In this document: positions 4,527 to 59,700 of the stretch, in pieces
Layout of the letters: each line of letters begins with the position of its first letter
Numbering within the stretch: the stretch's first letter is position 1
NCBI RefSeq assembly: GCF_021654035.1
Contig: NZ_JAJPDW010000002.1
Span: 372,001 to 436,000 of the forward strand
From: Microbacterium aurantiacum
GTDB taxonomy: Bacteria > Actinomycetota > Actinomycetes > Actinomycetales > Microbacteriaceae
Direction: 5' to 3'
Length of the DNA stretch: 64,000 bases
The notes under the pieces: generated by a model
Databases searched by the model: none
Seen by the model: the letters and a program-made list of their open reading frames with translations, nothing else
Told to the model about the DNA's origin: nothing
Made by a program: the position numbers and the translations under genes

Positions 4527-5126
4527 ATGGCTCGTTCATCGTTCCCGCTCCGTCGCGCGCTCGCCGTCGGTCTGGCCGCAACCGCCCTCGCACTGACCTC
4601 GTGCTCGCCGCCCGAGCCCGTGGATCCCGTCGGTCCGGCTCCGTCGGCGGAGGGTGCTCCCGCCGAGGACGCCTCGCCCTCGGCATCCGCTCCGGCCGCC
4701 GGGTCGGGGTCCGACGCCGACGTCGTCGCGCAGTACGAGGCGGCGCGCGCCGCGGTCGACCTCGCCGAGCGCACCGCCGGGGGGATGGCCTTCGAGCTGG
4801 ACGACGAGGACGGCGGCAACTGGGAGGTCCGCGTCGCGGTCGAGAGCGAGGAGTTCGAGGTCGTCGTGGATGCCGCCGGCACCGAGGTGCTGCGCAGCGA
4901 GCGCGACGACTCGCTCGACGGAGAGGACGCGGGACGCCTGAATGGTGTGCAGATCAGCCTCTCCGAGGCGATCGGGATCGCCGTATCCGAGTACACCGGC
5001 ACCGCGCGTCTGGACGACGCCGACCTCACGACCGAGGGCGACACCGTGGCGTGGGAGATCGGCTTCGCCGACGACGTGGAGATCTACCTCGACGTCCTCG
5101 ACGGCCGGGTCATCCGCGTCGACTGA
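4527..5126 (+). CDS. PepSY-domain lipoprotein
   Basis: A 199-aa predicted lipoprotein: signal peptide with lipobox LTSC, cysteine at residue 26, then a low-complexity Pro/Ala/Ser linker. Two PepSY-like units follow, seen in WEVRVAVESEEFEVVVDAAG and WEIGFADDVEIYLDVLDGRV. PepSY domains often inhibit peptidases or bind cell wall partners. ATG 4527 is chosen because the signal peptide starts there and CAGGCT lies six bases upstream. It is divergent from the dehydrogenase gene and is followed by repeat element copy 1. Confidence 0.8.
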   Translation: MARSSFPLRRALAVGLAATALALTSCSPPEPVDPVGPAPSAEGAPAEDASPSASAPAAGSGSDADVVAQYEAARAAVDLAERTAGGMAFELDDEDGGNWEVRVAVESEEFEVVVDAAGTEVLRSERDDSLDGEDAGRLNGVQISLSEAIGIAVSEYTGTARLDDADLTTEGDTVAWEIGFADDVEIYLDVLDGRVIRVD

Positions 5127-8815: not shown

Positions 8816-9634
8816 ATGGATGATCTCGTGGCCCCCGTGGTGGCCGTGGCGCAGTCCGAGGCCGTCGTCGATGACGTCGACCGGAACCTGGTGACCCTCG
8901 CCCGCCTGGCCGCGCGAGCGCGCGATCTCGGTGCGGACCTCGTCGTGACCCCGGAGCTGTTCGCGACCGGATACGCCCCCGACCGAGCGTGGCGTCACGA
9001 CGGCGCGGCCGTACGCGATTCTTTGGCGGCCATCGCGCGCGCCGAGCAGATCGCATTGGTCGCCTCGAGCGTCGAGTCCGTCACCGGCGTCGAGGGCGCC
9101 GCGCACCGCATCACCGCGTCGCTGTTCGATCCGGATGCCGGAGAGGTCGTCCGATTCGGCAAGCGACACCTGTTCGGCGAGACCGAGCGGGCGTGGATGA
9201 CACCAGCGGACGCCTATGCGCCGCCGTTCACGTGGGCGGGTGTCTCCTGGGGCGGTGGCATCTGCTACGACGTGGAGTTCCCCGAATTCGCCCGAGCGCA
9301 GGCGCTCGCGGGCGCCGACATCCTCTTGATCCCGACCGCCGTGCCGGTCGCCGAGGAAGGCGTCGTCGGGCTCGGGGAGGCGTGGCGGTACTCCGCGTCG
9401 CTGACGTCGACGCTGCAGGTGCCCGCGCGTGCTCTGGAGAGCGGCGTCGCCATCGCGTACGCCAACCACTGCGGCCCGGGTTTCACCGGCCGCAGCTGCA
9501 TCGCGACACCGTTCGGTCGTCACGCGGTGCTCCTCGGCGACAGCGAGGACGTCGCGGTCGCGCGGATCCCGCTGGATGCCGTGCGCCACGCGCGGGCCGT
9601 GAACACGTACGGCCCCGATCTCGCGCGCGGGTGA
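8816..9634 (+). CDS. carbon-nitrogen hydrolase (nitrilase superfamily)
   Basis: A 272-aa enzyme of the nitrilase/amidase superfamily. The catalytic triad is visible as Glu47 (VVTPELF), Lys116 (RFGKRHLF) and Cys150 (GGGICYDVEFPE). Such enzymes hydrolyse amides, nitriles or carbamoyl groups with a cysteine nucleophile. AGGAGG five bases upstream fixes ATG 8816; a TTG further upstream is not used. It is divergent from the transporter/dehydrogenase unit across the palindrome at 8736-8756, and ends 11 bp from the convergent TetR gene. It likely acts on the compound brought in by the NCS1 permease. Confidence 0.88.
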   Translation: MDDLVAPVVAVAQSEAVVDDVDRNLVTLARLAARARDLGADLVVTPELFATGYAPDRAWRHDGAAVRDSLAAIARAEQIALVASSVESVTGVEGAAHRITASLFDPDAGEVVRFGKRHLFGETERAWMTPADAYAPPFTWAGVSWGGGICYDVEFPEFARAQALAGADILLIPTAVPVAEEGVVGLGEAWRYSASLTSTLQVPARALESGVAIAYANHCGPGFTGRSCIATPFGRHAVLLGDSEDVAVARIPLDAVRHARAVNTYGPDLARG

Positions 9635-27977: not shown

Positions 27978-30900
27978 TCAGACCGCGCTGCGGGTGGCGC
28001 GGATGCGACGCACGTACCAGAGACGGGCGCCGACGCCCCCGGCGAGGAGCACCAGCGCCAGGAACACCGCCCGCAGAGCATGGGCGAGATCCGCGCCGGT
28101 CACGGCGAGCGGGTCGTCGGAGGACGAACCCACCGCCGCGCCATCGCCACCGGTGTCGCCGACATCGGTGCCACCGTTTCCGGGCGCGGGTGCGGGCGAG
28201 GCGGAGTCCGTCGGCGTGGGCGTCGGGGTCGGGGCGGGTGTGGGGTTCTCACCCTCGCCGGGCTCTTCGCCCGACCCCTCGCCGGGCTCTTCGGGCTCGC
28301 CCGGCTCCTCCCCGACGACCGACACCGCGACGGTCTCGGTGACGCCGTTCACCGTCACCGACAGCGATGCCTCACCTGGGGCGACGGCCGTGACCTCGCC
28401 CGTCGCCGGGTTCACGCGCAGTGCGCCGGCGGCCGCCGCTTCGAGTCCGGAGGTCAGACCGCGTGCGGTCGCGTCGACGCCCGAGGCGCCGACCACGTCC
28501 ACGCCCTCGCCGCCCCACTCTGCCGACACCGGCCAGGTGACCGGGACGACGCGTGCGCCATCCTGCATGAGGGACGCCGACACGGCCGCCGTCTCGCCGA
28601 CCTCCATGACGGACGGAGCCTGCAGCGTCACGGACTCGACCCGCGGCTTGGTCTCGGCCTGCATCCATCGGATCCGGTCCGCGACCACCTCCGGCGACGA
28701 CCCGACGACGCCCGAGCCGGGGTTGACGCCCAGCATGGTCCAGCCGGTGAAGCCGCCGGCATCCGGAGTGCCCGAGGGGCCCTTGCCGGCGTTGCCGCCG
28801 AGGATGCGGCTGACGCCGTCGTAGCTGGTGGCGTCGAAGACCCCGACGTGACCGTTGACCATCGCGGCCGACTTCCCCGTCTCGGCGCGGAAGCTCGTCA
28901 GCGTCTCGACGAACTGCGCCGCCTCCGTCCGGTCCGACAGCTGGCTGGCCTTGGTCGGCAGCGGATCGTCGACCGGGTGGTGCGAGAACACGAGCACCCC
29001 GGTGACCGTCGGGTCGGCGGCGGCGTCATCCAGGCGCTCCTCGAGGAAGCGCAGCTGGTCCAGCCCCGACGCCCGGAACGAGCCGGCTGCACTGTTGAGG
29101 GTGATCATGCGGGTTCCGCCGAGGTCCATCGACCGGTACGGATCGCCGAACGCGTCGATGAAGTTCGAGATCGCGCCGCCCATGATCTCGTGGTTCCCCG
29201 GCACGTAGACGTAGGGGATCCGGTCGCCGACCTCTTCGTCCAGGATGCGTGCGGCCAGCTCGAAGTCGGCGACGGATGCCTCGTCCACGAGGTCGCCGTT
29301 GATGACGAGGTAGTCGGGCTCGGCCGCGACGATCTCGCGCAGCGTGTCGCGCGTGGCCTGGACGAGGTCGCTGTCGGGGTTGCGGGCGACGAACTGCGCG
29401 TCGCTCATCACGGCGATGCGCTGCGCCCGGTCGTCGACCGAGCCGTCGGCGACGATCGCCGGGTCGAACACGCGGGCTGCGACGGGCTGGTCGACGTCGG
29501 GGGCGACCACCGACTCGAGCGAGGCGATCGTGATCTCGCCCTGGTAGCTCGCCGCCGGGCGCGTCTCCATCATGCGCACGCGCTGGAAGGTCAACGGGTA
29601 CGCGGTGCCGGCGGGAACGTTGAAGCGGGCCTGGCGCCATCCGGTCCAGTCCACCATCGGTCCGTCGAGGTTGATGGTGGTGCCCACGCCGGTCTTGAGC
29701 TGCAGCCGTGGCCAGGCGCCTGACCCGTCGCCGTGCATCCAGAGCGTCAGCGCCTGCGGCTGTCCCTCGAGGACGCGCCCGCCGGTGGCGGCCTCACCCG
29801 GGACGATCGCGTAGTACCCGCGGGTGCCGGTGGAGGTGGTGAAGTCGTACGACATCGTCAGTGCCGGCTGCCCCTCGGGTCCCGTCGCGGGGGTGAGAGT
29901 GCCCGTCGCGCGCGCGACACCGGCGGTCCACTCGGCGGCATCGGCGAAGTCGGCGATCCCGATGGTGCGGTAGCCCACGGTCACGGCGACATCGACGCTG
30001 CGTCCACCGGCGGTGAAGGTCACCGTCGCCGATCCGCTGTCAACGACGGGCGCGACGGTGAACTCACCGAGCCCGGTCGCCTCGACGGTGACGTCGGCGC
30101 CGTGCTCCACGGTGACGTCACCGGTCTCGATCGGGGCGCTGAAGCCGTCGGCGTCGAGGCCGGTCAGCCGCACGGTCGCCGTCTGGCCGGGCTCGGACAG
30201 AGCGACCACGGTCGCGCTCGGGCGGATCCGCTCGAGCTCCCCGAGGACGCGGAGCTGAGTGCTGGCGGTCTTCCCCTCGGCGGTGAACGAGACGGTCGCC
30301 GTGCCGGGCGTGAGGCCTTCCAGCTGCGCCGAGGCCTCGGTCGACGACGCCACGCGCACGGCGGCATCCGTCGACGCGGAGAACGAGCCCGCGACGGCGA
30401 CCCCGGTGAGGTTGTCGTCGACCCCGGTGCCGGAGACGGTGCGCTGCAGTCCGGGGAAGACCGCATCGGCGTCCGTCACATCGAGTGCGGGAGCGACGCG
30501 GACGTCGGAGACGACACCCGTCTCGGCGGTTGAGAAGAACGCGAGGCTGTTCGCGACGACGCGCTCGCTCCCATCGGACGGCCGGTTGTGGATCGATGCG
30601 TCGGTCTCGCCCGGCTCGCGGACGGCGAGCATCGTGGAGCCGCCGCCGTCGAGGTTGACGGCGTTGTGCACGTTCAGGTCGAGCATGAGGTCGCCGAGCT
30701 CGCGGAGGGTCATGCCGCGGCTGTCGCCCGCGCGGCCGTCGATCGTGACGACCGTGATCTCCGTGCCGTCGCGGTTGACGCCGATGGCGGTGCGCGATGC
30801 CTCGACCTGGTCGGCGTCGGTCTGCTCACCGTCGATGATGAGGCGCTGCGATCCGCTGACGGCGAGGTCGACATCCGCGGATGCCGACACGGTGACGTCG

Positions 30901-31745
30901 ACGGTGTCGCCGACCTCGAGCATCGCGAGGGTGGCGGCACCGGCTTCCCGGCCGATGAGCACACCGGTGCCCTCGGCGATCGCGGCGTCGCCGTCCACCG
31001 AGGCCGGATCGGTGCTGACTTCGGTGACCACGCCGTCCGCGACGGTGACCTTCGTCATCGGGGTGACCACGGTGGCGGGGGCGCCGAGCGGTCGGGCGAG
31101 GGTGTGGGTGCCCCAGGCCGGGGTGTACCAGCCGATGCCGCCGGTTCCGATGGTCGGGCTGTTCACCCCGGTGACGTCGTGAGTCGTGCCGTCGATCGTC
31201 ACGGTCGCGGCGGAGGTGAGTGCCTGCACGGCGGCGAGCCCGTCGGCGATCGTGAACGCCGGACGCGTATCGGGTGCGAGGGTGCGCACTCCCTGAGAGG
31301 GGGAGATGTTCGTGCCGACGGGGGCGGTGGAGTTGTTCATGTCGAAGTAGTCGCCGTTGACAGCGGCGACGGCGCCGGTGCCCGCGATCTGATCGCTGAG
31401 GGTGGCGCCGCCCGTGACGGATCCGGCATCCAGGACATCGAGCGACAGTGTCGGGGTCGTCAGATCGGCGCGCATGACGTGCCCGGTGACCCAGCCGGCC
31501 GGCTGGAGGCGACGGAAGTCGGTGAGCTCCAGGCCAGGGGCGAGGGTCTGCGACGACGACGTCAGGAGCGTCGAGTCGCCGCCGCTCAGGTCGAGGTCGA
31601 CGGCGGAGGCGGCGAGGGCAGGGGGCGGTGCGAGTGTGCCGACCCCCACCGCCGAGACGGCGACGATGGTGGCGAGGAGAGCCGCGCCCGTGCGACGGCG
31701 TCGGGATGAGGGCAGCGAAGAGCGTCGAGTATCGAGCGCAGGCAA
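27978..31745 (-). CDS. sortase-anchored phosphodiester glycosidase/metallophosphoesterase
   Basis: A surface protein of about 1,255 residues. Order: signal peptide (ends PPALAAS), a phosphodiester glycosidase (NAGPA) domain at about 80-410 with [10 protein letters not shown] and [10 protein letters not shown], Ig-like repeats, a carbohydrate-binding jelly-roll-like stretch, a calcineurin-type metallophosphoesterase at about 785-1060 (NGDLVDE, GNHE, FSHHP, NGHVG), a bacterial Ig domain, a Pro/Glu-rich spacer, and the anchor LAVTG-helix-RRIR. It probably removes sugars from phosphodiesters and then the phosphate, outside the cell, for example on teichoic acids. Start: TTG 31745 has GGAAGG eight bases upstream; GTG 31754 is the alternative. 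Confidence 0.85.
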
Positions 31746-31901
31746 GTGGAACACCTTCCGGTTCGAGTGGGGGAGTGGTGCCGAACCTCACTCGGTCACG
31801 GAGGCCGACGCGGCGACCCTACGTATCGACCCGACCCATCCGGTGACCTCCAGGTGAACGCGCGGTGCTGCTCCCCTCCTCAACGGGAAGGGAGCGCGAC
31901 G

Positions 31902-51050: not shown

Positions 51051-51473
51051 TCAGTCGTCGACGACGGTGACCGTGACCTCGATGTTGCCGCGGGTGGCGT
51101 TGGAGTACGGGCATACCTGGTGCGCCGCGTCCGCCAGCTGCTGGGCGACGGCGTGGTCGAGCTCGGGGATGTTCACTTCGAGGGCGACGGCGAGGCCGAA
51201 TCCGCCCTGTCCGTTCGATCCGAGGGCGACGCGGGATCCGACGCTCGAGCCTTCGATCGAGACCTTCTGGGCGCGCGCGACGCTCTGGAGGGCGCTGTGG
51301 AAGCAGGCCGCGTAGCCGGCGGCGAAGAGCAGTTCGGGGTTCGGTGCGCCGCCGGCGCCGCCGAGCTCCTTCGGGGTGCGGACGTCGGTGTCGAGGATGC
51401 CGTCCGCGGTGCGGACGTGACCGTCACGGCCTCCGCCGGTGGCGAGCGCTTCTGCGGTGTAGAGAGTCTCCAT
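51051..51473 (-). CDS. ohr: organic hydroperoxide resistance protein (Ohr)
   Basis: A 140-aa peroxidase of the OsmC/Ohr family that reduces organic hydroperoxides. The two catalytic cysteines are Cys57 (AAGYAACFHSAL) and Cys121 (HQVCPYSNATRG). Length is standard. Lies 50 bp downstream of ohrR on the same strand, so the two are probably one unit. Confidence 0.94.
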   Translation of the reverse strand: METLYTAEALATGGGRDGHVRTADGILDTDVRTPKELGGAGGAPNPELLFAAGYAACFHSALQSVARAQKVSIEGSSVGSRVALGSNGQGGFGLAVALEVNIPELDHAVAQQLADAAHQVCPYSNATRGNIEVTVTVVDD

Positions 51474-51523: not shown

Positions 51524-51973
51524 TCAGGATGCCGCGCGCAGCCCGCTCGCCAGCGCGCGCATGTTCGCCGTGATGGCCGTGAGCTGCTCCAGCAGTTCCG
51601 GCAGGCTGCGGCCGCTGTCGACGAAGGCGGGCACGAGGCAGCCCACCGCGCCGATGACTTCTCCGTGCACGCGTCGCCCGTCCTCGCTCAGCGAGACTCG
51701 GACCACGCGCTCGTCCTGATCGTCACGGCGACGGTCGACGAGTCCGCGGGTTTCCAGTCGGCGCAGCAGGGGCGACAGGGTGCCGGAGTCGAGGGCCAGT
51801 TCCTCGCCGAGGGAGCTCACGGTGCGCTCGCCGGTGGCGAGCACCACCATCGCGAGGTACTGCGGGTACGTCAGCGACCACGGCTTCAGCACTTCGCGGT
51901 ACGCCTGCGTCGTCGCGTGCGACGCGGAGTACATCGCGAAGCACACGAACTCGTCGAGCGTGGTGGCTGCCAT
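51524..51973 (-). CDS. ohrR: MarR-family organic hydroperoxide regulator (OhrR)
   Basis: A 149-aa MarR-type repressor. The reactive Cys11 near the N-terminus (DEFVCFAMYSASHA) is the peroxide sensor of OhrR; the winged helix is at about residues 50-95 (SSLGEELALDSGTLSPLLRR). It should release the ohr genes when oxidised. ATG 51973 is preferred; ATG 51991 lies in the promoter. A direct repeat upstream is the probable operator. Confidence 0.9.
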   Translation of the reverse strand: MAATTLDEFVCFAMYSASHATTQAYREVLKPWSLTYPQYLAMVVLATGERTVSSLGEELALDSGTLSPLLRRLETRGLVDRRRDDQDERVVRVSLSEDGRRVHGEVIGAVGCLVPAFVDSGRSLPELLEQLTAITANMRALASGLRAAS

Positions 51974-51988
51974 CGCAAAAGCATTGCA

Positions 51989-52017
51989 CACAACTCAATT
52001 GCCCACAACCTAATGCC
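51989..52017. promoter_or_regulatory. direct repeat ahead of ohrR
   Basis: CACAACTCAATTGCC (51989-52003) is followed directly by CACAACCTAATGCC (52004-52017). The CAATTG core resembles OhrR boxes. A repeated half-site in tandem is less usual than a palindrome. Confidence 0.45.
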
Positions 52018-52089
52018 GAGACGCGCCTCCCCCCCAACCCGCCCCGGATGTGACACTTTCGGACGATGCCCTCGCCCGACCCCGCTTCC

Positions 52090-52101
52090 TACGCTGGATC
52101 C
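52090..52101 (+). promoter_or_regulatory. leaderless promoter -10 of the histidine kinase gene
   Basis: TACGCT at 52090-52095, six bases, ATG 52102. Confidence 0.6.
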
Positions 52102-53346
52102 ATGACCGCGACCACACCGGAGCCCGCGACCGCCCTCACGCCCGCGTCCTCAGAGAGAACCCGCGCCCGCCGCGTCGGACGCGAGATCGCCGCGATCGTC
52201 TCCGTCACCCTCGCGGGCGCCCTGATCTTCATCATCAACTTCGGCCTCAGCGTCGACTCCGGCGCCGATGACACCACCCTGCGCTTCGCCGGTATCTTCT
52301 TCCTCGACATCCTCCTCGGCCTCCTCGCCGTGGGGCTCGTCACTCTCCGCCGCCTCGCGCCGCTCACGATCGCGATCCTCCTCGCGGTCATCGCCGCCGT
52401 GTCCTCGTTCGCGGTCCCGGCGGCTCTGCTCGCGCTCGTGTCGCTCGCCACCCACCGCCGCACGCGTGACATCGCCATCGCGACCGCGGTCTGGCTCGTT
52501 TCCGGCGCCGCCGCCGCGCTTCTCGGCCTCGACCTGATCGGCGTCCCGCTCGCCCCCGTCGATCTCGCGATCACCCTCGCGGTCACGGCGCTCCTCCTCG
52601 CCGTCGCGATCGCCATCGGCGTCTCGATCGGATCCCGCCGCGCCCTCGTCGCCTCCCTCCAGGAGCGCGCGATCCTCGTCGAAGAAGAGCAGCGCCTCCG
52701 CGAGGATGCCGCGCGCGACCACGAGCGCGCCCGCATCGCCCGCGAGATGCACGACTCGCTCGCGCACCGCCTGTCCCTGACGGCGATGCACGCGAGTGCG
52801 CTCCGCTACCGCGACGATCTCGACGCCGACGAGCGCGCTGCGGTCGTCGAGACCGTCCACGACAACGCCCGCGCGTCGCTCGGTGAGCTCCGTGACATCC
52901 TCGCCGTCGTCCGCGCTCCCGGGTCGGCCGAGTCCGACCACCCGCAGCCGACCCTCGACGACCTCGAGGCCCTCATCGCCACCGTCACCGCCGCCACCTC
53001 GGTCGACACCCGCATCGCCGTCGACACCGCGTCGCTGTCCCCGACGGTCAGTCGCCACGCGTACCGCATCGTGCAGGAGTGCCTCACGAATGCCCGCCGT
53101 CACGCCCCCGGTGCGCCGGTCACCCTCATCGTCGCCGGCACGGTCGGCGACCGCCTCGCCCTCACCGTCCGCAACTCCCTGCCCGCCGACGCCCAGACCC
53201 CCACACACGGCCAGACCCCCACCCCCGGCTTCGGCCTGATCGGGATCGATGAGCGCGTCCGCGCCGTCCAGGGCACCCTCGACATCACCCAGGGTCCCGA
53301 CGAGTTCCGCGTGGAGGTGAGCCTCCCGTGGTCGATCAGCGCATGA
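52102..53346 (+). CDS. two-component sensor histidine kinase (NarL/DesK type)
   Basis: A 414-aa membrane kinase. About five helices in the first 200 residues form the sensor; the HisKA_3 dimerisation domain carries the phospho-accepting His217 (RIAREMHDSLAHRLSL); the ATPase domain has the N-box ECLTNARRHAPG and the G-box GFGLIGIDERV. The signal is unknown. ATG 52102 has TACGCT six bases upstream. Its stop overlaps the response regulator start. Confidence 0.9.
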   Translation: MTATTPEPATALTPASSERTRARRVGREIAAIVSVTLAGALIFIINFGLSVDSGADDTTLRFAGIFFLDILLGLLAVGLVTLRRLAPLTIAILLAVIAAVSSFAVPAALLALVSLATHRRTRDIAIATAVWLVSGAAAALLGLDLIGVPLAPVDLAITLAVTALLLAVAIAIGVSIGSRRALVASLQERAILVEEEQRLREDAARDHERARIAREMHDSLAHRLSLTAMHASALRYRDDLDADERAAVVETVHDNARASLGELRDILAVVRAPGSAESDHPQPTLDDLEALIATVTAATSVDTRIAVDTASLSPTVSRHAYRIVQECLTNARRHAPGAPVTLIVAGTVGDRLALTVRNSLPADAQTPTHGQTPTPGFGLIGIDERVRAVQGTLDITQGPDEFRVEVSLPWSISA

Positions 53347-54026
53347 CGGATGCCGTCACCGTCGTCCTTGTCGACGACGACCCGCAGGTGCGATCGGCGC
53401 TGCGTCTCGTTCTCGGAACCGACACGGCCCTCACCGTCGTCGGCGAGGCGGCGGACGGACTCGAGGCCGAAGCGGTCATCGCCCGTCACCGCCCCGATGT
53501 CGTCCTCATGGACATCCGGATGCCGCGCTGCGACGGCCTCACCGCGACCGCCCGCGAGATCGCGCGCGATCCGTCGCAGGCGATCATCGTGCTCACGACC
53601 TTCGATGCTGATGAGGATGTCGTCCGCGCGCTCCGCGCCGGCGCCCGTGGATTCCTCCTGAAGGATGCGCCGCCGTCGGAGCTCGTCGCCGCGATCCGCG
53701 CCGCGGCGGAGGGTCGCCCCGTCCTCGCGCCGGGGGTGCTCGACACCGTGATGCGCCTGGCCGCCGACCACACCCGACTCCCCGACGCCGCCGATCAGAA
53801 GGCTCTGGCGTCCCTCACGCCGCGCGAGCTCGAGATCGCGCAGGCCGTCGCGCGCGGCGCCTCGAACGCCGAGATCTCCGCCGAGCTGTTCCTCTCCATC
53901 CCCACGGTGAAGACCCACGTCAGCCGGGTGCTCGGCAAGCTCGGTGTCGAGAGTCGCACCCAGGCCGCCGCTCTGATCCTCCGCTCATCGCCTCGCGAGG
54001 ATCGCCCCCGTGACCGTCGACGTTGA
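53343..54026 (+). CDS. LuxR/NarL-type response regulator
   Basis: A 227-aa response regulator. Receiver domain with acidic pair DDD near residue 11 and phospho-accepting Asp57 (VVLMDIRMP); output LuxR helix-turn-helix (LTPRELEIAQAVARGASNAE and LFLSIPTVKTHVSRVLGKLG). ATG 53343 overlaps the kinase stop by four bases. Cognate partner of the kinase. Confidence 0.92.
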   Translation: MTDAVTVVLVDDDPQVRSALRLVLGTDTALTVVGEAADGLEAEAVIARHRPDVVLMDIRMPRCDGLTATAREIARDPSQAIIVLTTFDADEDVVRALRAGARGFLLKDAPPSELVAAIRAAAEGRPVLAPGVLDTVMRLAADHTRLPDAADQKALASLTPRELEIAQAVARGASNAEISAELFLSIPTVKTHVSRVLGKLGVESRTQAAALILRSSPREDRPRDRRR

Positions 54027-54245
54027 CACCATCTCCCGATACGCGCTCCGCTGGGCCGAAGAGCATCTCGACTCCACGGCGTACACGACCCGGTGCCTTG
54101 CCTTCGTCGAAGACGCGATCGAGCGGGCGAACGAGGTCGAGATCTTCGGTGGCGGTTACGCCGGCGAATCCGCCGACCTGTACGGAGCGACCCATACCGC
54201 CGATCCCGCGCCTCCCGGTGCCTTCGTCTTCTACCGCAGCGTGCG
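54010..54245 (+). pseudogene. 5' part of a broken gene of unknown function
   Basis: GTG 54010, overlapping the end of the response regulator gene, opens about 75 normal-looking codons (ISRYALRWAEEHLDSTAYTT, then RCLAFVEDAIERANEVEIFG) that end near FVFYR at 54240. After that the frame reads Ser/Arg-rich noise and stops at 54282. The intact relatives I recall of this kind continue with a cell wall hydrolase-like or NlpC-like part, but this is uncertain. The break coincides with the start of the SDR remnant. Confidence 0.55.
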
Positions 54246-54935
54246 AACTTCTCGCTCGTCGACCTCTCCGAAGAGGGCTTGACGGCGACGACGGATGCCG
54301 TCCGCGAGGTCGCCCCCGACGCCAAGCTCCTCACCGTCACCGCCGATGTCTCGAGCGAGGAGGACACGCAGCGCTACGTCGACGAGACCCTGTCGACGTT
54401 CGGGCGCATCGACGGCTTTTTCAACAACGCCGGCATCGAGGGCAAGCAGAACCTCACCGAGGACTTCAGTGCCGACGAGTTCGATCGTGTCGTCTCGATC
54501 AACCTGCGTGGCGTCTTCCTCGGTCTCGAGAAGGTCCTGAAGGTCATGCGTGAGCAGGGGAGCGGCGCTGTCGTGAACACCGCGAGCGTCGGTGGTATCC
54601 GCGGCATCGGTCGCCAGTCCGGTTACGCCGCCGCGAAGCACGGCGTCGTGGGCCTGACGCGCAACTCGGCCGTCGAGTACGGCGAGTTCGGTGTCCGCCT
54701 GAACTCGATCGCCCCGGGTGCGATCTGGACGCCCATGGTCGAGAACTCCATGAAGCAGCTCGACCCCGACGACCCCCGCGGCGCGGCCGAGCAGTTCATT
54801 CAGGCGAACCCCACCAAGCGCTACGGCGAGGCTCCCGAGATCGCGGCGGTGGTCGCCTTCCTCCTCTCCGACGACGCCTCCTACGTCAATGCCACGGTCA
54901 TCCCGATCGACGGTGGCCAGTCCGCCAAGTACTGA
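54243..54935 (+). pseudogene. short-chain dehydrogenase lacking its N-terminus
   Basis: From about 54243 the frame encodes a classical SDR from the end of beta-strand 2 onward: SLVDLSEEGL, NNAGIEG, catalytic Ser in NTASVGGIRG, YAAAKHG with Tyr/Lys, and the C-terminal DGGQSAKY. The first about 35 residues with the GxxxGxG cofactor loop and any suitable start codon are absent; upstream codons belong to another gene in a different frame. It is almost surely inactive unless remade by frameshift. A strong hairpin follows. Confidence 0.8.
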
Positions 54936-54958
54936 GGCTCACGCCCCCGTGATGACAA

Positions 54959-54994
54959 GAGACCGCCCCAGCCCCTACGGGCTGGGGCGGTCTC
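54959..54994. terminator. strong bidirectional terminator hairpin
   Basis: GAGACCGCCCCAGCCC pairs perfectly with GGGCTGGGGCGGTCTC (16 bp, 4-nt loop) between the SDR remnant and the convergent small basic protein gene. Confidence 0.8.
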
Positions 54995-55017
54995 GGCGTC
55001 TCTCTTCCCAGGCCCCG

Positions 55018-55143
55018 TCAGCGGGACTTGCGCGGCCGCGCCGGCTCTGTGGCGGCCTTCGAGCGCTTGGCTTCGCGCTTCTCCTTGAGGCTGAGCTTCG
55101 GTTCCTTCTTCGTGTTGGCGTTTCGAGGCGACTTTCCAGACAT
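55018..55143 (-). CDS. small basic protein
   Basis: A 41-aa, Lys/Arg-rich protein (MSGKSPRNANTKKEPKLSLK followed by EKREAKRSKA). Small lone proteins that begin MSGKSPRN and are rich in KEKR are widespread in actinobacteria, with no known function. A GTG start at 55227 would add 28 residues. A 7-bp hairpin (55200-55221) lies upstream. Confidence 0.65.
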   Translation of the reverse strand: MSGKSPRNANTKKEPKLSLKEKREAKRSKAATEPARPRKSR

Positions 55144-55245
55144 GGCGATGCACGCTTCCTTTCCTTCATTGGCGTCGTCGGGCTCTCGAGGCCCGCGTCG
55201 ATCAGCGGGGGTCTGCTGATCCGTCACAGAGGTCTTTTCGTGGGG

Positions 55246-55407
55246 TCAGCCGAGCGCGAGCCACTTCGCGGACGGCATCCTCTCGTCGACACGGCCTGCG
55301 TCGATCCGGCCTGCGACGACCGCCCGGCGGCTGTCCGTTCTCCGTCTTCGGAGGAACGCGGGTCCCCATCCGCGGGTCTCGGTCGAGGTCGGGGGAGTGG
55401 TGAACAT
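55246..55407 (-). CDS. 53-aa protein in the DksA-like operon
   Basis: A 53-aa open frame (MFTTPPTSTETRGWGPAFLR, then a basic stretch and WLALG) with AGGAG six bases before its ATG. It begins 22 bp after the stop of the 194-aa gene on the same strand. Function unknown. Confidence 0.55.
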   Translation of the reverse strand: MFTTPPTSTETRGWGPAFLRRRRTDSRRAVVAGRIDAGRVDERMPSAKWLALG

Positions 55408-55429
55408 GGTGTGCTCCTGAGTCGTGGGG

Positions 55430-56014
55430 TCAGAGGTATTCGTTCATGCCGGCGGCGCCGATCGAGGTGTGCGCGATCTCCTGCCAGCGCAGCGCGACTC
55501 CTGCGTCGAGGGATTCGCGCTCTCGAGCGCGGGTGATGACGCGTTCGGCGAGGCGGTCGCGGTCGTTGCACCGTTCGGCCAGGACGGCCGTGATCACGAC
55601 CGATCGCGCGTATGCCTGCTCGAGTCGTGTGTGGATGCGTCGTGTGGCGCTGTCGCAGATCCGCAGCACGCTCGGCTCCGAGACGACGGGCGAGCCGTTG
55701 AGGACGAGAACGATGTGTTCGAGTCCTCGCAGCCGCGCGCAGAGCGCGGCGCATTGGTCTTCGATGTCGCGAAGTGCCGAGCGCAGGTGTCTCCGCGTGC
55801 GCAGTGCACGGATGTCGATGCCGATGACCACCGCGCGAGGGTTCCCTGTCACGGCGTCGACGCCGGGGAAGTGTTCGACTTCCGGCGCCGCGGCCAGCGC
55901 CGCCAGGCACGGCAGCGGGTCGCCGATCACTGCGATCAATGGTGTTCGCGAGGGTTCCGTGCCGAGGGTCACCGCATCGGTGACACCGACCGCTGCGTCA
56001 ACGTTTATCGACAC
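55430..56014 (-). CDS. 194-aa protein of unknown function
   Basis: A soluble protein with alternating strand/helix pattern: LIAVIGDPLPCLAALAAAPE, RAVVIGIDIRAL, HIVLVLNGSPVV, SVVITAVLAERC. This looks like a Rossmann-like alpha/beta fold but no family is recognised. GTG 56014 is proposed because it overlaps the last codons of the DksA-like gene, implying coupled translation; a later GTG is possible. Middle gene of a three-gene unit. Confidence 0.6.
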   Translation of the reverse strand: MSINVDAAVGVTDAVTLGTEPSRTPLIAVIGDPLPCLAALAAAPEVEHFPGVDAVTGNPRAVVIGIDIRALRTRRHLRSALRDIEDQCAALCARLRGLEHIVLVLNGSPVVSEPSVLRICDSATRRIHTRLEQAYARSVVITAVLAERCNDRDRLAERVITRARERESLDAGVALRWQEIAHTSIGAAGMNEYL

Positions 56015-56324
56015 TGCGCTGGCAATCGATGCAGTTCTCGGCGTACGGCATGATCTCCAGCCGTGCCGCGACGATCGGTCCACGACAACGGATGCAGCGG
56101 CCGTAGGTTCCGGCGTCGATGCGCTCCAGTGCGGCGGTGATCTGGTCGATCACGCGCTGGGTCGCTTGGCTCGTCGCCCAGGAGACGGGGTCGACGTTGG
56201 GTGCGGAGGTCGGGCGGGATTCGCGGATGGCGGCTTCTCGCTCTTCGAGTTCCTTCTGCAGGAACTGGCGAGTGCGCGAGTAATCCACGGTCGGTGCGGA
56301 CGGAAATGCAGTGTCTACGGACAT
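55998..56324 (-). CDS. TraR/DksA-type zinc finger protein
   Basis: A 108-aa DksA/TraR-like protein. N-terminal helices with a coiled-coil tendency (RTRQFLQKELEEREAAIRES), then the zinc finger Cys77-x2-Cys80-x17-Cys98-x2-Cys101. Such proteins enter the secondary channel of RNA polymerase and modulate initiation; a coiled-coil tip with the two acidic residues of true DksA is not obvious. AGGAG six bases before ATG 56324. First gene of an operon with the 194-aa and 53-aa proteins. Confidence 0.85.
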   Translation of the reverse strand: MSVDTAFPSAPTVDYSRTRQFLQKELEEREAAIRESRPTSAPNVDPVSWATSQATQRVIDQITAALERIDAGTYGRCIRCRGPIVAARLEIMPYAENCIDCQRSVDKR

Positions 56325-56450
56325 GAGAACTCCTGAAAGTGGGCGCGACGAATAATGGTGCAATTCAGGCACCGTCGTGCGAATACAAAAAAGGCGCCGC
56401 ATATGCGACGCGCTGGGATAAGAGAAAGAGCCGTGAAAACACGGGTCCAT

Positions 56451-56615
56451 CTACGGTGGCGCGCGACGGGTGAGGAGCGGAAGCGATCCGGCTTCCGCTC
56501 CCGTCTTCCGGGGCGGAAGCACCTCGTGCCGGGCTCCGGCGATGTCCAGGACATATCGCACGGTTCGAGCGCTGCGCAAAAGCGCTGCGCTGACAAAGGG
56601 TGCGGTGACGGACAT
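56451..56615 (-). CDS. 54-aa putative protein
   Basis: A 54-aa frame (MSVTAPFVSAALLRSARTVR, then YVLDIAGARHEVLPPRKTG) with a good promoter just before it and an almost leaderless start. The coding pattern is weaker than in large genes. It could be a real small protein or the 5' part of a regulatory leader for the DksA-like operon. Confidence 0.45.
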   Translation of the reverse strand: MSVTAPFVSAALLRSARTVRYVLDIAGARHEVLPPRKTGAEAGSLPLLTRRAPP

Positions 56616-56622
56616 GCCCCTC

Positions 56623-56650
56623 ACCATAGCCCGAAAAGAAAATAAAGCAA
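56623..56650 (-). promoter_or_regulatory. sigma70-type promoter ahead of the DksA-like region
   Basis: On the minus strand TTGCTT (56650-56645), 16-bp A/T-rich spacer, TATGGT (56628-56623), then seven bases to ATG 56615. One of the best promoter matches in the window. Confidence 0.6.
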
Positions 56651-56789
56651 GTCGCCCAGATTCCCCCGGAATGTCCCGTCCCTTTTCTTTCCCCCTTTTT
56701 CCCCACCCCGCCCGCACGCCACCTCGCCCGCCGGCGCTCCGCCCTCACCCGCGCGGCACCCTCACCGCTCGCGCAGCCCGCACTCTTCC

Positions 56790-57685: not shown

Positions 57686-59065
57686 TCAGAACGGCGGAAA
57701 GATCGAAGACGATTCGCGATCCGGTTCGAGGCCGGGACCCGGATCCGGCTCCGGGATGAACATCACTCGCGGTGGTGGATCCTCGATGTAGACCTTCCCC
57801 GACGGTGCGGTGAACTTCAGCCTCCCGCCGGGGAGTTGTTCGACGGCCCATCCCGCGGCGTGCCTGGTGACGTGGTGTCGGGTGCAGCACGGACCGAGGT
57901 TGTCGCCGTCGGTCTTCCCACCGTTCGCGTACTCCTGATGGTGATCGATCTCGGATCGCATCGCGGGTCGGCGGCATCCCGGGAACGCGCATCGCACGTA
58001 TCGGGCTTGCAGGAACCTCTTGATCCCCGCCGTCGGCGTGTACCGATCCGTGGTCAAGACCTCCGCGGTGACGGGGTGGAGGAACACCCGGTCGAACCCG
58101 GGAGCATTCCCCGTGAGGATCCGCACCGTGGCCGGGTCGATCGCGCACTTCCCGTTCAGCTCCGCCCCACCCGAGGTGGTTCCGGCGAGGGTGGTGGCGG
58201 GGATGCTGACCTGCACGCTCGCACGGATCGCTGCGAGCCCACCCCCGGTGGGGTCAACGGTGGGCGCGGCGGTGAGGAGCATGTCCATCACGACATCCGC
58301 ACGGATCTGATCCAGGGTGCGCTCGTCGAACCACGGTTCCTCGGCCTCTTCGCCGCGTGCCCGTCGCTCGGCGTACTCGCGCCGGGCCCGCAGGTCGGCG
58401 GCCTTGATCTCCCGCGCCACCTGGGTCGCGCGGTCGTACGCTCCGTGGACGTAGGTGGTGGGCGCGATCGTTCCGAGCATCGACATCCCGTCGGGCAAGT
58501 CTTCGACGAACACCCGCTGCTTACACGCCGCGACCTCGTGCCGCTCCTGCACCGTCCGCGGGTTGAGCTTGTCGGCGACCTGCTGCGCATACGGACGCAA
58601 CCGGCCCGTCGCAGTCTTCACCGCGTAATCCAGAACATCCTTCTCATACGCGGCCCGCGCAGCCGGGTCGGGCAGGTCCGACCCGAACTCCACGATCACC
58701 TTCGTGTGCGCCTGGGACACCTGCCCCGCCCGCCACGCCTCGAACGTCCGGGAGTACTCGGTTACGAGCCGGTGGCATTCGAACAACCGGTTCTGCACCG
58801 TACTGTCATTCACCCGAGTGGCCGCGCCGATCTCGGCCGCCATCGCCCGCAACGGCATCTCCCGCGCCTTCGCCGTCGCCGACCCGAGACACGCGGTCTG
58901 CTCCTGCGCGTACGCATACGCCTTCGCCATCGCCATCGCCTCACCCGCTTGCGCCTCGGCCATCAGCCGACGCCAGCCCACGATCTCATCGACGAATTCG
59001 CCCGTCTTCCGCGCCGCGACATCACCATCATCGCTGTCGCCCACCGGCTCCGAATTCTCGTCCAT
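57686..59065 (-). CDS. DUF222 / HNH endonuclease
   Basis: A 459-aa protein of the 13E12-type family of Microbacteriaceae and mycobacteria. The DUF222 domain covers about residues 25-330; the HNH nuclease is at about 375-425 with RCAFPGCRRPAMRSEIDHH and NLGPCCTRHH, whose cysteines and histidines bind zinc and the metal cofactor. Such genes occur in many copies and may be mobile, but no substrate or biological role is established. ATG 59065 is preferred because the TATACT at 59099-59104 is the -10, which rules out the ATG at 59098. Confidence 0.88.
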   Translation of the reverse strand: MDENSEPVGDSDDGDVAARKTGEFVDEIVGWRRLMAEAQAGEAMAMAKAYAYAQEQTACLGSATAKAREMPLRAMAAEIGAATRVNDSTVQNRLFECHRLVTEYSRTFEAWRAGQVSQAHTKVIVEFGSDLPDPAARAAYEKDVLDYAVKTATGRLRPYAQQVADKLNPRTVQERHEVAACKQRVFVEDLPDGMSMLGTIAPTTYVHGAYDRATQVAREIKAADLRARREYAERRARGEEAEEPWFDERTLDQIRADVVMDMLLTAAPTVDPTGGGLAAIRASVQVSIPATTLAGTTSGGAELNGKCAIDPATVRILTGNAPGFDRVFLHPVTAEVLTTDRYTPTAGIKRFLQARYVRCAFPGCRRPAMRSEIDHHQEYANGGKTDGDNLGPCCTRHHVTRHAAGWAVEQLPGGRLKFTAPSGKVYIEDPPPRVMFIPEPDPGPGLEPDRESSSIFPPF

Positions 59066-59098
59066 GGCTTCTCGTCTCGATCGATGTTCCGTCCTCAT

Positions 59099-59104
59099 AG
59101 TATA
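59099..59104 (-). promoter_or_regulatory. -10 element of the HNH endonuclease gene
   Basis: TATACT on the minus strand, 33 bp before ATG 59065, in a locally A/T-rich stretch. Confidence 0.5.
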
Positions 59105-59223
59105 GAACACAGCTACGACATTGAGTGGGGGATGATCCCCAATGTGGATAACAAATATCGAACCTAGATACGCCCTTCGCGACCCCACCCGCCCGGAATC
59201 CCCGTCCTCCCCCCCCCGCTTTC

Positions 59224-59263
59224 GGATGGTCGAGTGTCCGCGTAGCGGCCGTACCGAGACCCG
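59224..59263. repeat. GGTCGAGT palindromic repeat, copy 2
   Basis: GGATGGTCGAGTGTCCGC, then GTAGCGGCCGTACCGAGACC. It occupies the 267-bp gap between the HNH gene and the 108-aa gene; the remaining sequence of that gap shows no gene. Confidence 0.7.
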
Positions 59264-59332
59264 GACGACCCGCAACGCCGGCCCCACGCGACCCCGGCGA
59301 CCCCGGCGACCCGCGCGTGGTCGAATAGGCCC

Positions 59333-59659
59333 ATGCCCGCCCCGCAGAACGCGATCTCTCTCACCCTCGATGGAACCCCCGACTTCCCGAGCGTGGTTCT
59401 CCAGGCGCTCTACCGCATCACGCGGCGCTCCACCCCTGAGCTGCGCCGCGCGATCCGCGCCGGCGAGCCGATCTTCACCGCTGCCCTCTTCGGCACCGAT
59501 CACATCGATGTCGTCCCTCGCCTTGAGAAGACGGTCGACTACCTCGGCGGGCTCGGCATCCCGTTCACGCTCCACGAATGGGTCGACGGATCCCGCGAAG
59601 AGATCGCCGTCCAACTCATGCGCGAGATCATCGAGGCCGCCGACGGCTCCTCCGCCTGA
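59333..59659 (+). CDS. 108-aa protein of unknown function
   Basis: A soluble alpha/beta protein (ISLTLDGTPDFPSVVLQALY, later DVVPRLEKTVDYLGGLGIPF). The last part resembles the C-terminal fold of ribosomal protein L7/L12, as in small actinobacterial proteins, but no family is certain. TCGAAT six bases before ATG suggests a leaderless mRNA. Ends 41 bp before the convergent four-helix protein gene. Confidence 0.65.
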   Translation: MPAPQNAISLTLDGTPDFPSVVLQALYRITRRSTPELRRAIRAGEPIFTAALFGTDHIDVVPRLEKTVDYLGGLGIPFTLHEWVDGSREEIAVQLMREIIEAADGSSA

Positions 59660-59700
59660 CCTGCGCACCCGCGCGATCGGCTCGCGACGTCAAGCGGTCG

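What the first reader, a model, noticed from the sequence alone, without database searches (positions are those of the whole stretch)
54010..54935. Chimeric scar joining two broken genes
A 5' gene fragment (54010 to about 54242) meets an SDR that lacks its first about 35 residues and is in a different frame. Both genes break at the same point, so one deletion removed the 3' end of the first and the 5' end of the second, with the intervening DNA. Neither product can be normal.
Basis: partly seen in the sequence, partly recalled or inferred. Interest (0 to 1): 0.5.

Follow-up and report, generated by a model that had tools for sequence, protein, structure and literature searches.

The report
Two broken genes fused at one point
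In this bacterium, probably a Microbacterium, the front half of one gene has been joined to the back of a dehydrogenase gene that lost its cofactor-binding start; it is an ordinary, probably recent rearrangement scar that very likely disables both genes.

Summary
At 54241-54243 the first 77 codons of a ~165-codon NlpC/P60-like gene meet a short-chain dehydrogenase (SDR) that lacks its first 31 residues, in another frame. The nearest solved structure is levodione reductase (1IY8). The lost piece holds the TGxGSGLGR cofactor loop, present in 80 of 80 fetched relatives. Neither missing half was found in the assembly.

In four relatives with the same ohr-ohrR/SDR locus, gene 1 is absent; the window carries an extra ~2.2-kb block (histidine kinase, response regulator, gene-1 5' part) between ohrR and SDR. 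An insertion was needed, with loss of the block's right end and the SDR 5' end then or later. The join shares only 2-3 bp and has no flanking repeats; Ku and LigD are present, so end-joining is plausible but untested. The SDR remnant still shows ordinary constraint, so the scar looks young. The same SDR is truncated differently in two other genomes, G134 and G353. No reads were available; an assembly error is unlikely, not excluded. Low interest.

The parts
51051..51473 (-). ohr-type gene (OsmC family), native left flank
   Evidence: Pfam OsmC E 3.2e-16; same place beside the SDR locus in G254, G060, G245, G131 and G134
51524..51991 (-). ohrR-type MarR regulator, native left flank
   Evidence: Pfam MarR E 3.3e-11; synteny as above
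52002..52055 (.). left edge of the extra block, placed only roughly
   Evidence: homology to G134's ohrR side ends at 52001, to G245 by eye at about 52015; a motif shared with kinase promoters of other genomes starts at about 52053, by eye
52066..53346 (+). sensor histidine kinase (ATG at 52102 is the likelier start), part of the extra block
   Evidence: Pfam HisKA_3 E 1.5e-15; kinase plus regulator 72-73% identical in DNA over about 1.75 kb to G377, G375, G303, G376
53343..54026 (+). LuxR-type response regulator, part of the extra block
   Evidence: Pfam Response_reg E 1.5e-27 and GerE E 2e-18; DNA homology to other genomes ends at about 53975
54010..54240 (+). 5' 77 codons of gene 1 (NlpC/P60-like, about 165 codons when whole)
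   Evidence: family from two whole orthologs, just under the Pfam cut-off
54241..54243 (+). the join; GTG fits both parents
   Evidence: SDR relatives read GGTGCGAAC here in five of eight shown; gene-1 orthologs carry Val (GTN) at this codon in nine of nine
54243..54935 (+). SDR remnant, residues 32-261 of a levodione-reductase-type SDR
54279..54282 (+). TTGA: stop of the run-on gene-1 frame overlaps an in-frame TTG of the SDR
   Evidence: use as a start not shown

Best explanation
A rearrangement scar. In the ancestral locus the SDR stood downstream of, and divergent from, ohr-ohrR with its own upstream region and start. In this lineage a ~2.2-kb block holding a histidine kinase, a response regulator and the first 77 codons of an NlpC/P60-like gene came to lie between ohrR and the SDR, and the SDR lost its upstream region and first 31 codons. 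The right edge was joined by non-homologous joining with 2-3 bp in common. It may have been one replacement event, or an insertion followed by a deletion. The run-on gene-1 ORF (90 aa) lacks more than half of its protein; the SDR remnant lacks the TGxGSGLG cofactor loop and its start. Both are pseudogenes. Shown: the two truncations, the shared point, synteny of both flanks, absence of the missing halves from the assembly. Inferred: order of events, joining mechanism, loss of function.
For: Truncations against orthologs. Flank synteny: ohr-ohrR near the SDR in four of 11 SDR loci fetched (G254, G060, G245, G131) and in G134; the window's 3' flank 54824-56654 aligns to G134 directly after its SDR 3' end. 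No kinase-regulator or gene-1 hit in those four loci, and no kinase-regulator hit in the nine gene-1 loci read. Missing halves not found: gene-1 3' half 0 matches in G000, matches in 5 of 5 controls; SDR 5' piece: best of 24 hits only 65% identical, inside a 403-aa open frame of another SDR. No repeat with copies at both edges. Ku and LigD polymerase domain present. Remnant under ordinary constraint: omega 0.09-0.16 against seven relatives, 0.05-0.17 among those relatives, 1 departure at 137 otherwise invariant positions.
Against: No reads and no second strain of the species, so an assembly error or a one-strain event cannot be excluded. The left edge of the block is not sharply placed. The donor arrangement kinase-regulator-gene 1 was seen in no other genome, so the block's unity is unproved and a further join near 53980-54010 is possible. 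The unbroken constraint on the remnant would also fit a remnant still in use. In seven of the 11 SDR loci ohr-ohrR was not found nearby.
Confidence: 0.7

Rival explanations
1. Plain deletion: gene 1 and the SDR were near neighbours on one strand in the immediate ancestor and one deletion removed both ends and everything between.
For: Both halves missing from the assembly; single join with microhomology; could be the last step after an insertion.
Against: No genome seen with the two as neighbours: in G253 they are 120 kb apart on opposite strands, in G185 on different contigs; the four syntenic relatives lack gene 1 near the SDR. It leaves the kinase-regulator insertion unexplained.
Confidence: 0.2
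2. Assembly or sequencing artefact: two unrelated pieces wrongly joined.
For: No reads available; remnant shows no decay; no other genome holds the join (none of the rows listed spans it).
Against: The join lies deep in a 619-kb contig, in single-copy DNA without repeats; the missing halves were not found anywhere in an assembly rated 100% complete; both flanks belong to the same native locus, so a wrong join would also have to have dropped the right piece.
Confidence: 0.07
3. A working new gene: the SDR remnant is still translated, from GTG 54093 or by coupling at TTG 54279, and does something.
For: 230 codons without stop or frameshift and ordinary constraint; TTGA overlap of the run-on stop with an in-frame TTG.
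Against: Without residues 1-31 there is no first beta strand or TGxxxGxG loop, which SDRs use to bind the cofactor (recalled knowledge of the family); present in 80 of 80 relatives examined. Lack of decay is equally expected of a young pseudogene. The upstream extension is out-of-frame, arginine-rich sequence.
Confidence: 0.03

Closest known systems
Levodione reductase (PDB 1IY8) and other classical SDRs
   Same: The full-length G060 ortholog matches 1IY8 over residues 2-261 at 447 bits, next best solved sequence 174 bits; 1IY8 is described as the Leifsonia aquatica levodione reductase in passages of PMC8725002. The remnant keeps NNAG and YAAAK.
   Different: The window copy lacks residues 1-31, with the TGxGSGLG loop, and its own start. 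Substrate of this gene not tested.
NlpC/P60-like family (gene 1)
   Same: Two whole orthologs match Pfam NLPC_P60 at E 1.1e-4 and 3e-4.
   Different: Both scores (22.6 and 21.2 bits) are just below the curated cut-off of 23; the window's 77-codon fragment has no family match.
Truncated genes left by non-homologous joining (ordinary pseudogenes)
   Same: Sharp ends, 2-3 bp in common, no flanking repeats, missing parts not in the assembly.
   Different: Here two genes break at one point and a block new to the locus lies to the left.

Membership tests
Classical SDR (levodione-reductase type) | N-terminal TGxxxGxG cofactor loop | tested here: not met
   Absent from the window copy; present in 80 of 80 relatives (the best 80 of 363 kept)
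Classical SDR (levodione-reductase type) | NNAG and YxxxK motifs | tested here: met
   NNAG and YAAAK in the remnant; their role is recalled
Classical SDR (levodione-reductase type) | Activity with NAD(H) and levodione | not testable with these tools
   No bench work
NlpC/P60 | Pfam NLPC_P60 above cut-off | tested here: not met
   Whole orthologs at 22.6 and 21.2 bits against 23; window fragment no match
Rearrangement scar / pseudogene pair | Both genes shorter than orthologs, ending at the same point | tested here: met
Rearrangement scar / pseudogene pair | Missing parts not present elsewhere in the genome | tested here: met
   18 contigs, so gaps remain possible
Rearrangement scar / pseudogene pair | Join present in reads | not testable with these tools
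   No reads held
Plain deletion between neighbours | A relative with both genes intact, adjacent, same strand | tested here: not met
   Not seen: G253 and G185 have both genes far apart

The most novel reading that the evidence does not exclude
The ohrR-SDR interval is a recurrent breakage and insertion site in this genus: the levodione-reductase-type gene has been broken separately in three lineages (5' loss with a 2.2-kb insert in the window's genome; internal loss plus a displaced 321-bp piece 32 kb away in G134; 3' loss in G353), with joins made by short-overlap end joining. It would be a natural record of how the Ku/LigD pathway moves gene pieces.
Probability: 0.25. Interest if true: 0.35.

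Novelty: new member of a known kind. Interest (0 to 1): 0.15.

Why it matters
Mainly an annotation point: automatic annotation could call the 280-aa ORF an SDR although its cofactor-binding start is gone, and the 90-aa ORF a gene. That one dehydrogenase gene is truncated in three of the 20 genus genomes where a clear copy was listed, each time differently, gives a small natural series for the study of gene loss and end joining.

Tried and rejected
Reciprocal join: because intact gene 1 and SDR lie on opposite strands in G253, an inversion could have made this join and a mirror join elsewhere (SDR 5' piece plus gene-1 3' half). Searches of the window's own genome found neither half (control), so a balanced inversion is not supported; it could hide only in gaps between the 18 contigs.

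Homologous recombination or a mobile element: no repeat with copies at both edges of the block. No transposase search was made. Plasmids: 115 records match part of 52010-54935, none covers 80% of it, and the best match is to a kinase-regulator pair. Phages: no match to the gene-1 fragment at E <= 0.01.

Donor: gene 1 was found in 2 of 398 family genomes drawn evenly over 85 genera, the window's own and G253, and in 11 others of the genus. None of the nine gene-1 loci read has the kinase-regulator pair; two of the 11 (G384, G388) were not fetched. Whether G254, G060, G245 and G131 hold the kinase-regulator pair elsewhere was not settled: one search scored only the two best candidates per genome.

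Relaxed selection: not seen, so the remnant gives no sign of age beyond 'young or still constrained'. Tests are pairwise and the tree leaves out G134 and G353.

Full report
Where it is. The window is G000:C11:372001-436000; the contig is 619 kb and the join lies 426 kb into it. The genus is most likely Microbacterium: contigs of same-genus genomes have exactly the lengths of named Microbacterium records, e.g. G185:C1 and NZ_VYRZ01000001.1 (1,253,665 bases).

The observation. Gene 1 starts at GTG 54010, overlapping the end of a response regulator gene, and its frame runs to a stop at 54282. In 366 genus genomes (the own one included) 11 others match its first 77 codons at E 7.4e-24 to 5.5e-9. 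Nine were read whole: 165-176 codons from the aligned start; the window leaves the alignment at codon 78. The fragment has no family match; two whole orthologs match NLPC_P60 just below the cut-off. The SDR from 54243 is 230 residues, adh_short_C2 E 2.4e-53. The full-length G060 ortholog is 261 residues, so 31 are missing. The genus search with it lists 20 genomes with a close copy (75% or more identical): 17 reach from residue 1-3 to 261, three are cut, namely G000, G134 and G353; the next match is 47% identical. In 80 of 80 named-collection loci (the best 80 of 363; some are the same genomes as in the genus search) the motif TG[GA]GSGLGR stands just upstream of the part the window keeps. The nearest solved sequence is 1IY8, 447 bits against 174 for the next; passages of PMC8725002 call it the levodione reductase of Leifsonia aquatica, with NADH bound (passages only).

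The join. SDR relatives read GGTGCGAAC where the window reads AGCGTGCGAAC in five of the eight relatives shown; the other three differ there. All nine gene-1 orthologs have Val at codon 78, so at least GT and at most GTG is common to both parents. No repeat has copies at both edges of the block.

The surroundings. In four of 11 fetched SDR loci (G254, G060, G245, G131) ohr and ohrR lie on the far side of the SDR start, directly next to it in G060 and G131, and with a homolog of the window's 27978-31754 gene between in G254 and G245. In the other seven ohr-ohrR was not found within the stretch. G134 also has ohr-ohrR and, after its SDR 3' end, the window's 3' flank up to 56654 (67% identity). 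So both flanks of the window's scar are the native locus, while kinase, regulator and gene-1 fragment are extra. The kinase-regulator pair is 72-73% identical in DNA over about 1.75 kb to G377, G375, G303 and G376 and 69% to G185 and, in part, G334; in the first four a different gene follows the regulator (read by eye as an alpha-amylase-type hydrolase). None of the nine gene-1 loci has the pair. Intact gene 1 and SDR are far apart in G253 and G185. A plain deletion between neighbours therefore does not tell the whole story.

The missing halves. A query of the gene-1 C-terminal part gave no match in G000 at E <= 10 and matches in five of five control genomes at E 7.6e-28 or better. The SDR N-terminus gave 24 hits in G000, the best 65% identical and inside a 403-aa open frame that also holds the rest of another SDR. 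The assembly has 18 contigs, so gaps remain.

Age and function. Pairwise omega of the remnant against seven relatives is 0.09-0.16; among those relatives 0.05-0.17. In 12 three-way comparisons G000 never had significantly more amino-acid changes (largest chi-square 1.33). It departs at 1 of 137 positions invariant in the 17 others. So there is no decay: the scar is young, or the assembly is wrong, or the remnant is still used. I favour the first: the remnant has lost the loop that SDRs use for their cofactor (recalled) and its own start. Possible starts in its frame are GTG 54093, inside gene 1, and TTG 54279, which overlaps the stop of the run-on gene-1 frame as TTGA.

The same gene broken elsewhere. 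In G134 the native locus keeps codons about 19-62 and about 225-261, joined directly; codons 69-176 lie 32 kb away at C1:477263-477586, next to DNA that in G254 lies about 6 kb beyond the SDR. G353 has only codons 1-100, in another setting. Over the 321 bp shared, G134 is closer to G254, G060, G131 and G245 (89-93%), all intact, than to G000 (87.5%), so its break is most likely separate; G353 was not placed on a tree. Three of 20 is suggestive of a fragile place but no base rate for other genes was measured.

Mechanism. Ku and a LigD polymerase domain, one copy beside Ku, are present, so end joining with short overlap is available. That it made this join is inference.

Verdict. Observation confirmed, with the join at 54241-54243. 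Interpretation partly right: both genes are broken at one point, but an insertion is also needed. An ordinary scar of low general interest.

Noticed in passing
L218 (G134) 4791-5038 and L219 (G134) 9267-9587: In G134 the same SDR is in pieces: two joined pieces at the native locus and a 321-bp inner piece about 32 kb away.
   Followed up: partly
L063 1389-1697 / L220 9334-9641 (G353): Only the first 100 codons of the same SDR, in a different neighbourhood.
   Followed up: partly
window 27978-31754: A 1258-aa protein (NAGPA and metallophosphatase domains) is 84% identical to a gene that stands between ohrR and the SDR in G254 and G245 but lies about 20 kb from ohr here: more traffic at the same interval.
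   Followed up: no
L067 (JACEFY010000317.1, 3009 bases): Titled Stenotrophomonas maltophilia P13 but carries a Microbacterium-type SDR 89% identical to the window's; a contig of the same length (G269:C243) is placed in the window's genus, so the title looks wrong or the assembly mixed.
   Followed up: no
window 57686-59668: DUF222/HNH protein; homologs lie near the SDR in G254, G060, G245 and G131.
   Followed up: no
window 51974-52015: Inverted-repeat-like TTGCACACAACTCAATTG element upstream of ohrR, largely kept in relatives, perhaps its operator (by eye).
   Followed up: no
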